Below are positions 7,543 through 12,442 of a stretch of 64,000 nt of DNA, one piece after another. The notes beneath the pieces are model-generated. The model did not search any database and had not been told where the DNA came from. It worked only from the letters and a program-made list of their open reading frames with translations. The stretch is taken from NCBI RefSeq assembly GCF_014323725.1, contig NZ_JABVED010000009.1:1-64000 (forward strand). Reading direction: 5' to 3'. This DNA comes from Actinokineospora xionganensis (GTDB taxonomy: Bacteria; Actinomycetota; Actinomycetes; Mycobacteriales; Pseudonocardiaceae). Numbering within the stretch: position 1 is the stretch's first letter; every line of letters begins with the position of its first letter. The translations under genes and the position numbers were made by a program.

Positions 7543-7635
7543 ATGACGCAACAGTCCGTAACCATGGCACTCCGCAAGGTCGCAGGGGACTGCGAACTCG
7601 CGCTCGCCCAAGAGGCCACCTGTGCCCTCACCTAG
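7543..7635 (+). CDS. Short remnant of a small DUF6879-associated protein
   Basis: A 30-residue reading frame (MTQQSVTMALRKVAGDC then ELALAQEATCALT). Its first 17 residues align with the start of the intact 70-residue paralogue at 8334-8546 and its last 13 with the end of that protein (EL...EA..ALT). About 37-40 residues of the middle are missing in frame. It therefore looks like an internally deleted, probably non-functional copy. The stop overlaps the GTG of the next gene by 14 nt, the same coupling as in the intact cassette. It is probably read from the leaderless promoter at 7531. Confidence 0.55.
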   Translation: MTQQSVTMALRKVAGDCELALAQEATCALT

Positions 7636-8125
7636 CCCGTTCCACACATACCGGCGGTCGGCATGGCGGTTGGAGATCCCGCAGGCCTTCGCCATCCCAA
7701 GAGAGCAGGAGCGACTCCGCGCGTTCCGCGCGGGTGAGCCCGAACCGCCGCACAGCGACAGCTATCGCGAGTGGTTCGAACTCACCAGGTCGAATGTCGC
7801 ATCGGGCAAGACGATGGGGCGCGTGCGCGTGGTCCGTAGACCGCTCAGCGAATACGTCCGGTTTCAGTTCACCTGGGGCATCCCAAACAACATATCGGCA
7901 GGCGAGGACATCCGGATCCTCGACGTCACCGACCTCGACCTGTCACTGCCGGACCACGACTTTTGGATCTTCGACGAGGAGAGCGTCCTCCGAATGGACT
8001 TCGACAAGGACGGCGCGCTGACGAGCCAGGGAATCCTGGCCGGCGCAGACCTCGACCAGTACCGGGAATGGAAGCGCATGGCGCTGGCTCACTCCGTTCC
8101 CTTTGAGGACTATGTACGCCCCTGA
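7622..8125 (+). CDS. DUF6879 family protein, cassette A
   Basis: A 167-residue protein starting at GTG 7622. Landmarks are SAWRLEIPQAFAIPREQE near the N-terminus, MGRVRVVRRPLSEYVRFQF in the middle and VPFEDYVRP at the end. It is about half identical by eye to its neighbour at 8530-9045, so the duplication is old. The DUF6879 family has no established activity; in actinobacteria it commonly precedes XRE/DUF5753 regulators. It overlaps the preceding ORF by 14 nt and the following broken regulator by 14 nt. It is the only intact gene of cassette A. Confidence 0.75.
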   Translation: MPSPSPFHTYRRSAWRLEIPQAFAIPREQERLRAFRAGEPEPPHSDSYREWFELTRSNVASGKTMGRVRVVRRPLSEYVRFQFTWGIPNNISAGEDIRILDVTDLDLSLPDHDFWIFDEESVLRMDFDKDGALTSQGILAGADLDQYREWKRMALAHSVPFEDYVRP

Positions 8126-8333: not shown

Positions 8334-8546
8334 ATGACAACACAGCCAGTGATGACCCTTCAGAAGATCGCAGGCGATTGCCACGACCGCGATTGCCCTA
8401 CCGTGTACGTGTCAGACCGAGGGACTGTCGTCTTCCAGGGTGATGCGGTGACAGAAGCAGGCGGCCTTCGCCTCGGCGACGGCGAGCAGGCGGTCGAACT
8501 GCCGATGAGTGTGGTGAGAGAGGCGATCAGTGCGCTCGGGACCTGA
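8334..8546 (+). CDS. Small DUF397-like protein, cassette B
   Basis: A 70-residue protein, MTTQPVMTLQKIAGDCHDRD at the start, then a beta-rich middle (CPTVYVSDRGTVVFQGD) and a helical end (VVREAISALG). Its size, position and pattern resemble the DUF397-type small partners that accompany XRE/DUF5753 regulators in Streptomyces and relatives, but the match is by eye and loose. It probably starts on a leaderless message. Its stop overlaps the GTG of the next gene by 17 nt. It may act as a partner or antagonist of the regulator; no function is established. Confidence 0.65.
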   Translation: MTTQPVMTLQKIAGDCHDRDCPTVYVSDRGTVVFQGDAVTEAGGLRLGDGEQAVELPMSVVREAISALGT

Positions 8547-9045
8547 GCCGACAGGGGATCCGTTCCTTGACTTCCGATCATCGGCGTGGCGTTTGGAGAC
8601 CCAGCAGGTCTACTCGTTCCCACGCGAAATCGAACTCCTCCGACGCTTCCTGGCGGGCGAGCCCGAGCCCCCGATCGACGCACAACTCCAGGGTTGGCAC
8701 GACCTAGTCCGAACCAGCGTCGCAGCGGGAAAGACGATCGGACGGGTGCGAGCAGTCCGACGACCGCTGACCGACTACGTCCGCTGCCAGTTCGCTTGGG
8801 CTATTCCCCATAACATCGCGGCAGGCGAAGACATCCGGATCCTCGACCTGACCGACGACCTCGATCTTCCCGATCAGGATTTCTGGCTGTTCGATGACAC
8901 CGACGTTTTGGAACTCAATTTCCGCAAGGACGGCACGCTGCTCGATCGGCAGATGTCGACCGGACCGGACGTATCGAGGTACCTACGGTGGCGACAAATA
9001 GCTCTCGACCACGCGGTTCCATTCGAGGACTATGTTCGATCCTGA
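8530..9045 (+). CDS. DUF6879 family protein, cassette B
   Basis: A 171-residue protein from GTG 8530, paralogous to 7622-8125. Shared blocks include SAWRLE, GRVR.VRRPL..YVR.QF, AGEDIRILD.TD and VPFEDYVR. No catalytic motif or membrane segment is evident. It is translationally coupled on both sides: its start overlaps the small protein by 17 nt and its end overlaps the XRE regulator by 14 nt. The three genes thus form one compact operon. The biochemical role of DUF6879 is unknown. Confidence 0.78.
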   Translation: MRSGPEPTGDPFLDFRSSAWRLETQQVYSFPREIELLRRFLAGEPEPPIDAQLQGWHDLVRTSVAAGKTIGRVRAVRRPLTDYVRCQFAWAIPHNIAAGEDIRILDLTDDLDLPDQDFWLFDDTDVLELNFRKDGTLLDRQMSTGPDVSRYLRWRQIALDHAVPFEDYVRS

Positions 9046-9868
9046 GCGACAACAGCAAGAGCGCAAAGACCTTGCCAAGGCCCTCCGCGACTTGCGGAGG
9101 GCCTCAGGCCTGTCCGGTGATCGACTCGCTGCCCGGTGCGCCATGTCGCAGTCCAAGATCAGCCGGATCGAAAGTGGGAAGGTCCTTCCGTCAATAGTTG
9201 ATGTTCAGCGAATCCTGGCCGCGCTGGGCGTGGCGAATGACGCCGCCAAGCCGTTTCTTGATCTGGCGCGGGTAGCCAATGTTCATTATCGATCCGTGCG
9301 TTCGCTCGCAGAGATGGGCATCTGGCGAGGACAGGAGGAACTCGGCGCACTGGTCGAATCGGCGTCGACCATCCGCTACTTCACTCCCGCCGCGCCGTCC
9401 GGCCTGCTCCAGACCGCCGACTACGCGAGGGCCATCCTTACGCCGACCATCAGTGGCAGGCCGGCCCGAAACGTCGACCGGGCCGTGGAAGCCCGACTGA
9501 AGCGGCAGCAGGCACTGCACGACCGCTCCCGCCGATTCATTTTCATCATGACGGAGCAGACCGTGCGATGGCGGCAGGCACCCGCGGAAGTCATGTCCGC
9601 ACAGTGCCACCACATGGCAGAACTGGCCGAACTGCCGAACGTTACGATCGCCGTCGTTCCCAACGACGCCGAGATGGATTGCGGTGTACCCCTCAATAGC
9701 TTCACCGCGTATGACGAACGGTTCGTCCTGGTCGAGTTGTTCTCCGGCGAGATGATGCTGCGCGATCCACGAGACGTGGAGTATCACCTCAACATCATGA
9801 ACCATTTTCTGGAGCGCGCACTTGTCGGAGCGGAAGTTACCGCCCTTCTGCGACGAATCGAATTCTGA
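9032..9868 (+). CDS. XRE-family regulator with DUF5753 domain
   Basis: A 278-residue DNA-binding protein. Residues 1-75 form the helix-turn-helix (LSGDRLAARCAMSQSKISRI, with the recognition helix at SQSKISRIE). The rest is a DUF5753 domain, recognised by SGLLQTADYARAILTP near residue 135 and VRWRQAPAEVMSAQCHHM further on. The group includes WhiJ-type developmental regulators of Streptomyces, which act with small partner proteins. The start overlaps the DUF6879 gene by 14 nt. It may bind the palindromes at 7484, 8275 and 9868; that is inference from proximity. The stop codon shares its last base with the third palindrome. Confidence 0.88.
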   Translation: MFDPERQQQERKDLAKALRDLRRASGLSGDRLAARCAMSQSKISRIESGKVLPSIVDVQRILAALGVANDAAKPFLDLARVANVHYRSVRSLAEMGIWRGQEELGALVESASTIRYFTPAAPSGLLQTADYARAILTPTISGRPARNVDRAVEARLKRQQALHDRSRRFIFIMTEQTVRWRQAPAEVMSAQCHHMAELAELPNVTIAVVPNDAEMDCGVPLNSFTAYDERFVLVELFSGEMMLRDPRDVEYHLNIMNHFLERALVGAEVTALLRRIEF

Positions 9869-10472: not shown

Positions 10473-11143
10473 ATGTCCGGACACCTCGAACAAGCGGCGG
10501 CGGCATTCGCCGCCGCTAGTCAAAGCGTTCCCCTCGACCATGTGCAGGCCGCCACCGGCCTGATTCCGGCAGTCGTGCAGGCGATCAGCCAGGCAGGTGG
10601 CCAGGCGGGACAGGAGCTGGTCCAACTCGCGCTGAGCGTTCAGGGGGATCTCGATGGGATCAGCGGAAGGTTGCTGGACCTCCGCGAGAAATGGACTCCG
10701 CGACGCAGGCCGTGTTGCGGGGAAGCGTTTGAGCGGCGCCGGGTAGCGAAAGTACCCAAGCGCCCGCCTTTCCGACAATCGCTGTTGAGGCTGGCGAGCT
10801 ACGTTCGTTTCCTTCGTTCTCGGCAGCGAAACGTGCCCTGGGCACACGGGCGGGCCACGAGTTGCACCACATCGTCGAACAGAATCAGGGTGACATGCGA
10901 GCCGGCCGATCTACCGGCTACAGCGGATTCACCGAGCACCGGATCAACACGACCGACAACCTCGTCTGGCTGCCGATATCCGTCCATCGGCGCATCAGCC
11001 GCCACTACGCGACCAATGACAGGTTCACGGGGACACCGCCGCGGCGGCTTCTCAGGGGCACATCACGGGATCATCAGCACAGCTACGGCTTGCGGCAGAT
11101 AGCCCGCGCACAGCGCCAGGAGGACAGCGATGGATCACCCTGA
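10473..11143 (+). pseudogene. Frameshifted HNH-type polymorphic toxin gene
   Basis: From ATG 10473 (AGGAGG 13 nt upstream) the frame encodes a helical, WXG100-like head of about 75 residues (MSGHLEQAAAAFAAASQSVP, then repeated Gln/Gly/Ala helices, ending LLDLREKW). The downstream part lies in another frame: from about 10735 it reads APAFPTIAVEAGELRSFPSF, then SAAKRALGTRAGHELHHIVEQ..., TEHRINTTDNLVWLPISVHR and RISRHYATNDRF, ending at TGA 11141. The GHE-x-HHIVEQ, NTTDNLVWLP and VH-x-x-IS-x-Y series is typical of HNH/EndoVII-fold nuclease toxins. In-frame stops block each simple frame around 10700-10740, so at least one indel separates head from toxin. Either the gene is inactivated or the read has an error. 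Confidence 0.65.
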
Positions 11144-11480
11144 CCAGCTGCGCAAAGAGTTCGAGGGTCGCGTGCGCGCACTCGACGCGACCACCGTCGA
11201 AGGCGATCCTGACGCCCGCCGAATCAACCAACTGTCCGCCGAACTGAGGGATCGGGTAGCCGAATGGGACGAACTCGGCCTCACCCAGGAGATCCTGACA
11301 CCCCTGCTGAGATCCGAGGCGGCAGGCATCCGCGCTTCGGCGGCAGGGTTCCTGCTTCGGCGCGGCGAACAGGAACGAAGTCTCGTCGTGTTGCGTGAGA
11401 TCGCCGAAGACATCTCCTTGGGCGATGTCTCCTCGATGGCTGAAACAGCACTCATGGCGTGGGACGCCGAACAGCGCTAG
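11130..11480 (+). CDS. DUF2019-like protein, candidate immunity protein
   Basis: A 116-residue, all-helical, acidic protein (MDHPDQLRKEFEGRVRALDA start; DPDARRINQLSAELRDRVAE; then a HEAT-like IRASAAGFLLRRGEQERSLV). The pattern resembles the DUF2019/HEAT-like small proteins often found as immunity partners of secreted nuclease toxins. It starts inside the end of the toxin frame (14-nt overlap) with AGGAGG upstream, the usual toxin-immunity coupling. The 3' end overlaps the convergent thiL by 4 nt. The immunity role is inferred from position and fold type. Confidence 0.7.
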   Translation: MDHPDQLRKEFEGRVRALDATTVEGDPDARRINQLSAELRDRVAEWDELGLTQEILTPLLRSEAAGIRASAAGFLLRRGEQERSLVVLREIAEDISLGDVSSMAETALMAWDAEQR

Positions 11481-12442
11481 CGCCAGTGCTGCCAGCCCGC
11501 GGCGCCCTCGTAAGTGGCTCCATCGACGGTGACGCCCGAGCCCCGGGTGACCGTGCCGATCGCGCGCCAGCCCTCCGGGATCGCGCCCGGGTCGGGGAAG
11601 GTCGCCGCCAGGGCGTGGTCTTCGCCGCCGGTGAGGACCCAGTGGCGCGGGTCGGCGCCCAGGGCCTGGGCAACGTCGATCAGGCGCTGGTGCACCTCGA
11701 TCAGGTCGGTGCGCACATCGATGGCCACATTGGATGCGACGCCGATGTGGCCGAGGTCGGCGAGCAGGCCGTCCGAGACGTCGATCATCGCGGTGGCTCC
11801 GCAGTCCGCCGCCTGCGGTCCGGCGGCATAGGGGGGTTCCGGGGCGCGGTGGGCGCCGACGACGGTGACCGGGGAGCGGAAACCCCGGCCCAGCACGGCC
11901 AGCCCGGCCGCGCTCCAGCCGAGGCGGCCCGCGACGGCGACGATGTCTCCGGGCATGGCGCCGCCGCGGGTGACCGGCATGCGGCCCTCCAGGTCGCCGA
12001 GGGCGGTGACTGAGATCACCATCGTGTCGGAGCTGGCCATGTCGCCGCCGATGATGCCGATGCGGGCTCTCGACGCCTCGTGCCACATGCCCGCTGACAG
12101 TTCGTCGATCACCGATACCGGTGTCGTCGACGGGCACGCGAGGCCGACCAGCACCGCGGTGGGGACCGCGCCCATGGCGGCGATGTCGGCGAGGTTCACC
12201 GCGATCGCCTTGCGGCCCACCTGATCCGGCGGCGACCAGTCGAAGCGGAAATGCACCCCCTCGACCAAGACATCCGTGCTGGCCACGACTCTGCCGTCGA
12301 CCGCGGCGACCACGGCGGCGTCGTCGCCGGGGCCGAGCAGCGTCGGGGCGCCTTGTTTGCGGCCCTCGGTGATTCGGCGGATGAGACCGAACTCACCCAC
12401 ATCGGCCACGGTTTCCTGGCCATGGGTCGAATCCGGTCGCAC
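11477..12442 (-). CDS. thiL: Thiamine-phosphate kinase
   Basis: A 321-residue ATP-dependent kinase that converts thiamine monophosphate to thiamine diphosphate, the last step of the pathway. N-terminal landmarks are LLGPGDDAAVV (residues about 36-46) and STDVLVEGVHFRF (about 55-67), both metal/ATP-site motifs of the AIR-synthase/ThiL fold; AVNLADIAAMGA follows. Length is normal. The start is ATG 12442. It is divergent from the AsnC-domain gene and ends 4 nt inside the candidate immunity gene. thiL is part of the conserved mycobacterial-type neighbourhood. Confidence 0.96.
   Translation of the reverse strand: MRPDSTHGQETVADVGEFGLIRRITEGRKQGAPTLLGPGDDAAVVAAVDGRVVASTDVLVEGVHFRFDWSPPDQVGRKAIAVNLADIAAMGAVPTAVLVGLACPSTTPVSVIDELSAGMWHEASRARIGIIGGDMASSDTMVISVTALGDLEGRMPVTRGGAMPGDIVAVAGRLGWSAAGLAVLGRGFRSPVTVVGAHRAPEPPYAAGPQAADCGATAMIDVSDGLLADLGHIGVASNVAIDVRTDLIEVHQRLIDVAQALGADPRHWVLTGGEDHALAATFPDPGAIPEGWRAIGTVTRGSGVTVDGATYEGAAGWQHWR

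What the first reader, a model, noticed from the sequence alone, without database searches (positions are those of the whole stretch)
10473..11480. Candidate secreted HNH nuclease toxin with DUF2019-like immunity partner, toxin frame broken
Seen: helical WXG100-like head, then in another frame a GHE-x-HHIVEQ ... NTTDNLVWLP ... VH-x-x-IS-x-Y series, and a coupled small helical gene overlapping by 14 nt. Known: HNH/EndoVII-fold toxins with such motifs and small helical immunity proteins form polymorphic toxin systems. Inference: a toxin-immunity pair behind two unknown small genes. The frame break falls between head and toxin domain, so the immunity gene could persist after toxin loss, or the break could be a read error.
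Basis: partly seen in the sequence, partly recalled or inferred. Interest (0 to 1): 0.72.

Follow-up and report, generated by a model that had tools for sequence, protein, structure and literature searches.

The report
Toxin behind a conserved stop codon
The toxin gene here is a damaged member of a bacterial family in which a stop signal sits, in frame, between a small carrier protein and its toxin, which suggests that cells make a little carrier-toxin fusion by occasionally reading through the stop.

Summary
The toxin-immunity pair is real: 10733-11143 encodes an AHH-like HNH nuclease domain, and 11130-11480, overlapping it by 14 nt, a HEAT-like partner found beside 8 of 8 compared nucleases. 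The frame reading needs correcting. In relatives, head and toxin share one frame but are separated by a stop codon right after the head. The window has that stop (TGA 10730-10732) plus a private frame change inside the head's last helix near 10690, so this copy is probably dead. I found 15 such loci in 12 genomes of 6 Pseudonocardiaceae genera: related heads, then different toxin domains (AHH-HNH, DddA-like deaminase, three unnamed). The stop is TGA 13 times, TAG twice; T-stop-A context in 10 of 15 against 5 of 136 control ORFs (UGA-A is reported leaky in E. coli). The first ATG/GTG/TTG lies 18-97 codons after the stop; pN/pS after it is 0.30-0.60. Sister loci use two genes: a solo head plus a head-toxin fusion. 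Best reading: readthrough lets one gene make much solo head and a little head-toxin fusion, probably for type VII export. No experiment shows this; internal initiation and silent storage remain rivals.

The parts
10473..10729 (+). Small helical head gene; the reading frame changes near 10690, and the last helix is read in the nuclease frame (10688-10729)
   Evidence: ORF and alignment with relatives; related head L003 modelled as helical hairpin, pLDDT 94.7
10730..10732 (+). Conserved in-frame stop (TGA) between head and toxin
   Evidence: Same place in the 15 loci of this class
10733..11143 (+). Linker and AHH-like HNH nuclease domain, no standard start codon before codon 44
11130..11480 (+). 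Predicted immunity gene, HEAT-like, overlapping the nuclease end by 14 nt

Best explanation
The window holds a damaged member of a Pseudonocardiaceae polymorphic-toxin family in which one gene encodes a small WXG100-like head, a leaky stop, a linker and a toxin domain, followed by an immunity gene. In intact relatives most ribosomes stop after the head and release the solo head; a minority read through the UGA (or UAG) and make a head-toxin fusion. The solo head would pair with the head of the fusion and the pair would be exported, probably by type VII secretion, while the immunity protein protects the producer. Shown from sequence: the conserved stop, the same frame on both sides, exchanged toxin domains, a skewed stop context, purifying selection after the stop, the two-gene sister arrangement, the neighbouring partner gene. 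Inferred: readthrough itself and its rate, the pairing, the export route, nuclease activity and immunity. In the window copy the further frame change inside the head should prevent a head-toxin product, leaving a relic with its immunity gene.
For: 15 loci in 12 genomes of 6 genera have head, stop and toxin in one frame (in the window the head's last helix only), while in 13 of 14 two-head loci the second head starts within about 2 residues of the end of the first in another frame, and in the fourteenth, L093, the heads lie apart. Behind the stop: AHH-like nuclease, DddA-like deaminase over the Pfam cut-off in 3 loci, and three kinds without a Pfam match over the cut-off. First ATG/GTG/TTG 18 to 97 codons after the stop; in L060 the conserved block begins about 8 codons after the stop and the first start is at codon 34. 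Base after the stop A in 13 of 15, against 11 of 65 other solo heads (p 6e-7) and 20 of 136 control ORFs (p 2e-8); base before it T in 12 of 15, against 4 of 65 (p 1e-8) and 22 of 136 (p 8e-7). Counting near-copies once, A 10 of 12 and T 10 of 12 (p 1.5e-6 and 3e-6 against the ORFs). AGA follows the stop in 7 of 15 but is 5 of 210 Arg codons further on in the other 14 loci. UGA before A is reported as prone to misreading by tRNA-Trp in E. coli (PMC5289835, passages). pN/pS after the stop 0.30-0.60 in 11 of 11 pairs. The same nuclease in G401 is made by the two-gene plan, solo head then head-nuclease. In 9 of 12 genomes no further head was found at E 0.001. Two EccC genes of type VII secretion over the cut-off in the window's genome.
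Against: No protein or ribosome data. 5 of 15 heads are damaged (window, L038, L059, L061, L141) although the toxin part stays open. Some toxin parts have a possible GTG or ATG start at or before the domain, for example L038 (with a GAGGA upstream), L052, L054, L055, L141. No shared RNA structure after the stop (mean z about -0.5). Long open frames after stops are common here (27 of 134 control ORFs have 130 codons or more), so openness alone proves nothing. The window and L035 have G after the stop. One E. coli proteome study reports G, not A, after the stop as lowering termination accuracy (PMC11126739, passages). Stop-free head-toxin fusions occur in or near the same head group (L136 and one L093 head). 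Many pairs used for pN/pS are saturated at synonymous sites, and one of four close pairs does not reach significance for third positions (p 0.085).
Confidence: 0.58

Rival explanations
1. The toxin part is a separate cistron begun at an internal start after the head's stop (GTG, or an unusual codon), and the shared frame is inherited from an older fusion.
For: Possible GTG or ATG codons at or before the domain in L038, L052, L054, L055, L141 and, at the start of the conserved block, L056. Toxin parts remain open behind damaged heads.
Against: First standard start lies well inside the domain in the window (codon 44), L032 (97), L035 (42) and L060 (34). Does not explain the T-stop-A context or the AGA codon. 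A separate toxin would lose its carrier.
Confidence: 0.2
2. The stop is a safety catch: the toxin is normally silent and stored as a cassette, expressed only after recombination or mutation joins it to another head.
For: Polymorphic toxins are described as exchanging domains with standalone cassettes (PMC3482391, passages); the same kind of domain occurs behind other upstream sequence without a stop.
Against: Same position of the stop in 15 loci, skewed context, linker kept in frame, pN/pS under 1.
Confidence: 0.13
3. The UGA is read as selenocysteine, or stop codons are reassigned in these genomes.
For: UGA in 13 of 15 loci.
Against: UAG in two loci; no SelB over the cut-off in the window's genome (best 199.8 bits against 242.25; I read that match as EF-Tu; the other genomes were not searched). 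84 of 136 control ORFs end in TGA.
Confidence: 0.02

Closest known systems
Type VII secreted polymorphic toxins (LXG toxins with small partner proteins: PMC9600955, PMC10653861, listing and start of abstract)
   Same: Small helical partner plus head-toxin protein with exchangeable C-terminal toxin domain and immunity gene; the two-head loci fit this plan.
   Different: Here one head gene is followed by a stop and the toxin in the same frame, with no separate partner gene; heads are about 85 residues and reach no Pfam cut-off.
AHH (PF14412) HNH/EndoVII nuclease toxins
   Same: His-His, Glu, Asn and His positions invariant in 8 homologues; weak profile match.
   Different: The window's match is under the curated cut-off (16.3 against 22.3 bits).
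DddA-like deaminase toxins (PF14428)
   Same: L020/L052, L129 and L141 score above the cut-off.
   Different: Located behind an in-frame TGA or TAG.
Programmed stop-codon readthrough (gammaretroviral Gag-Pol, PMC5009743 passages; Q-beta coat extension, recalled)
   Same: Main product ends at the stop; a minor, longer product in the same frame would carry the extra function.
   Different: Bacterial toxin genes with exchangeable extensions; no constant downstream structure; not shown experimentally.

Membership tests
Polymorphic toxin system | Conserved N-terminal part with different toxin domains in different loci | tested here: met
   Related heads, at least five kinds of following domain
Polymorphic toxin system | Immunity gene directly downstream | tested here: met
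   For the AHH-like type, 8 of 8 loci; not aligned for the other toxin types
Polymorphic toxin system | Toxicity and protection by the partner | not testable with these tools
   Needs an experiment
AHH (PF14412) | Score above the curated cut-off | tested here: not met
   Window piece 16.3 bits against 22.3
HNH/EndoVII-like nuclease (fold level) | Conserved His-His ... Asn ... His positions | tested here: met
   Invariant in 8 homologues, Priestia and Azospira included
HNH/EndoVII-like nuclease (fold level) | Predicted fold | not tested
   The fold job did not start, machine busy
DUF2019 (PF09450) for the immunity protein | Profile match | tested here: inconclusive
   2 of 8 members, best 0.0019; none for the window's protein up to E 0.1; HEAT_2 8 of 8
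WXG100 / ESAT-6 (PF06013) for the head | Profile match | tested here: not met
   Best E 0.41, under the cut-off, among the heads scanned
WXG100 / ESAT-6 (PF06013) for the head | Helical hairpin fold | tested here: inconclusive
Programmed readthrough gene | Conserved stop with coding-like selection on both sides in one frame | tested here: met
Programmed readthrough gene | Non-random stop context | tested here: met
Programmed readthrough gene | Extended protein made in cells | not testable with these tools
   Needs peptide or footprint data

The most novel reading that the evidence does not exclude
A family of bacterial chromosomal toxin genes uses programmed readthrough of a conserved UGA/UAG to make, from one gene, an excess of secretion partner and a small share of partner-toxin fusion; unrelated toxin domains are swapped in behind the same leaky stop, which thus acts as a standing control of dose and stoichiometry for polymorphic toxins.
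Probability: 0.55. Interest if true: 0.85.

Novelty: new variant of a known kind. Interest (0 to 1): 0.72.

Why it matters
Readthrough is described for viruses and animals, but the listings of my full-text searches showed no bacterial toxin family built on it (open-licence papers only). If true, it would explain how a toxin fusion and its secretion partner are kept in ratio. It would mean that ordinary annotation misses such toxins, because several of these toxin frames lack a start. It also gives a directly testable site of a few dozen bases. Starvation and low temperature raise UGA readthrough in E. coli (PMC11126739, passages), so toxin dose could follow growth conditions (inference).

Tried and rejected
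Rejected: one single break between head and toxin (relatives show a stop there). Slippage as the route past the stop: in the relatives both sides share one frame, so it is not needed. Selenocysteine. A shared hairpin after the stop: strong single cases (L036 z -4.3) but mean z about -0.5 over 15 loci. Openness of the frame as evidence (27 of 134 control ORFs). The two small upstream genes as parts (no hit in other held loci). Viral and phage homes: no relative by tblastn in IMG/VR or INPHARED (nuclease only); PHROGs and PADLOC none. Head in plasmids: none for two heads tried. PDB by sequence: none for the nuclease, 37 weak mostly coiled-coil matches for the heads, EsxA at 0.055 among them. L013 (E 6e-4) lacked the nuclease motif in a six-frame look; L004 (E 4e-6) was looked at only as listed ORFs and in one translated frame; both were dropped. 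Wider head searches: 1 of 394 class genomes with the narrow profile, the own one; 3 of 111 order genomes with the broad one, all in this family.

Rows dropped: in the tree, L141, L061, L059, L058, L042 and L137, heads under 60 residues, and 38 of 51 solo heads. In the head table, identical head sequences were counted once, and only hits up to E 1e-4 in the loci scanned were kept. The codon-position test used 4 close pairs, aligned without gaps from the 3' end. The control ORFs are mechanical (longest non-overlapping, 200 aa or more), not curated genes.

Full report
What is there. The head ORF starts at 10473; the nuclease motif series lies in another frame at 10733-11143. The small gene 11130-11480 overlaps the nuclease end by 14 nt. 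The window lies on contig C70 of a 6.8-Mb draft genome in 70 contigs, G000.

Toxin and partner. The nuclease piece matches Pfam AHH at E 0.01 and HNH_2 at 0.089, both under the cut-offs. In 8 aligned homologues the His-His pair, a Glu, two Asn and a His are invariant; AHH is matched by 5 of 8, best 1.4e-4. Homologues lie near the C-terminus of a 558-residue Priestia ORF and, unannotated, next to an ISL3 transposase gene in Azospira. Each of the 8 has a small HEAT-like neighbour: HEAT_2 8 of 8, DUF2019 2 of 8. A toxin-immunity pair is thus well supported by association; activity is inferred.

The break re-examined. In G013 the head (86 residues) ends in TGA and the nuclease follows in the same frame, with no ATG, GTG or TTG until codon 97, inside the domain. 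G187 has the same plan, first GTG at codon 18. In the window the TGA stands at 10730-10732 in the nuclease frame, and the head's last helix, recognisable beside relatives, is read in that frame too. The head ORF from 10473 is in another frame, so the frame changes near 10690. The window therefore shows one conserved stop plus one private frame change.

A family of stop-interrupted toxins. A head profile found 11 of 390 Pseudonocardiaceae genomes, a broader one 80 of 390. Among 97 distinct head sequences in the loci scanned I see three arrangements: solo heads; two-head loci; and single heads followed by a stop and, in the same frame, a toxin domain. Of 14 two-head loci, 13 have the second head starting within about two residues of the end of the first, in another frame; L093 has its heads apart. 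In most of these the second head runs on 129 residues or more before a stop, the plan of a fused toxin. The third class has 15 loci: window and L055 (G000), L032 and L036 (G013), L035 (G014), L038, L059 and L061 (G388, G386, G387), L052 (G250), L054 (G032), L056 (G187), L060 (G280), L129 and L141 (G218), L135 (G160). G014 and G160 are in one contig and G218 in two, so assembly error is an unlikely cause of the stops. Twelve of the 15 heads were put in a tree and fall in one supported set of 16 rows (98/96) that also holds L023, L136 and both L093 heads. L136 and one L093 head run on without a stop; L023 has the stop but only 27 open codons after it.

What follows the stop differs. AHH-like nuclease: window, L032, L056. 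DddA-like deaminase: L052 (scanned as L020, 8.3e-29), L129 (6.9e-17) and L141 (4.2e-14). A domain without a Pfam match: L035, L055, L060. Another without a match over the cut-off: L036, L038, L054, L059, L061 (scanned: L024, L025, L028); its relatives lie in proteins annotated as haemagglutinin-repeat (2) or ALF-repeat (1) in 3 of 6 plasmid records. A last one, L135, without a match, looks HNH-like by eye. In a search of 105 genomes of the family, 16 of the 20 returned loci of the fourth kind of domain have 83 or more open residues upstream of it; L159 is the class member L054, and L164, L171 and L177 have a stop 34, 13 and 35 residues upstream. So the joined plan is the usual one.

Signs of readthrough. 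First standard start codons after the stop, in codons: window 44, L032 97, L035 42, L036 38, L038 37, L052 41, L054 32, L055 27, L056 18, L059 36, L060 34, L061 37, L129 47, L135 50, L141 26. The stop is TGA 13 and TAG 2. The next base is A in 13 of 15, against 11 of 65 other solo heads and 20 of 136 control ORFs; the previous base is T in 12 of 15, against 4 of 65 and 22 of 136; T-stop-A in 10 of 15 against 5 of 136. With near-copies counted once, A and T are each 10 of 12. AGA follows the stop in 7 of 15, three of them near-copies, but makes up 5 of 210 Arg codons further on in the other 14 loci. UGA before A is reported as prone to misreading by tRNA-Trp in E. coli (Engelberg-Kulka 1981 as cited in PMC5289835, passages), and UGA as the leakiest stop (PMC11126739, passages). 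The same paper reports G after the stop as lowering accuracy, which does not favour A. pN/pS after the stop is 0.30-0.60 in 11 of 11 pairs, several of them saturated; third positions change most in 4 of 4 close pairs, one at only p 0.085.

Weak points. Five of 15 heads are damaged (window, L038, L059, L061, L141) while the toxin part is open. Some toxin parts have a plausible internal start. No RNA structure is shared. Open frames after stops are common in these genomes. The window copy has G after its stop and a broken head, so by itself it says little for readthrough; the case rests on relatives, among them the second locus in the same genome (L043/L055).

Novelty. The listings of full-text searches for readthrough with polymorphic toxins, type VII secretion, toxin domains, immunity proteins, Streptomyces, and bacterial readthrough in general showed no such system. 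The held text of the main polymorphic-toxin review has no occurrence of stop codon, readthrough or frameshift (PMC3482391, 300,000 of 357,715 characters). Hence: a new variant of a known kind.

Noticed in passing
L043:4156-4896 (-), G000 contig C20: The window's own genome has a second locus of the same plan with an undamaged head, TGA and 162 open codons of another toxin domain.
   Followed up: yes
L129, L141 (G218): Two paralogous loci use TAG, not TGA, between head and a DddA-like domain; the head of L141 is only about 45 residues.
   Followed up: partly
L038, L059, L061 (G388, G386, G387): Heads damaged at the N-terminus (L038, L061) or by an inner TAG (L059) while the toxin part stays open; decay or assembly error in genomes that are 82-91% complete.
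   Followed up: partly
G100, G101, G058: Genomes of one genus hold 29, 17 and 10 matches of the GISGKDR...LKPLP-type domain each, an unusual expansion.
   Followed up: no
L015:3001-3704 (Azospira plasmid pAZI09): Unannotated AHH-like nuclease fragment beside an ISL3 transposase gene, with its HEAT-like neighbour annotated only as hypothetical.
   Followed up: partly
window 8530-9868: A DUF6879 gene followed by an overlapping HTH_31-DUF5753 regulator gene; a second ORF like the first lies at 7622-8125 (seen by eye, not scanned with Pfam).
   Followed up: no
window 11477-12442 (-): Long ORF on the other strand ending tail to tail with the immunity gene; I recall it as thiamine-phosphate kinase, no call tested this.
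   Followed up: no
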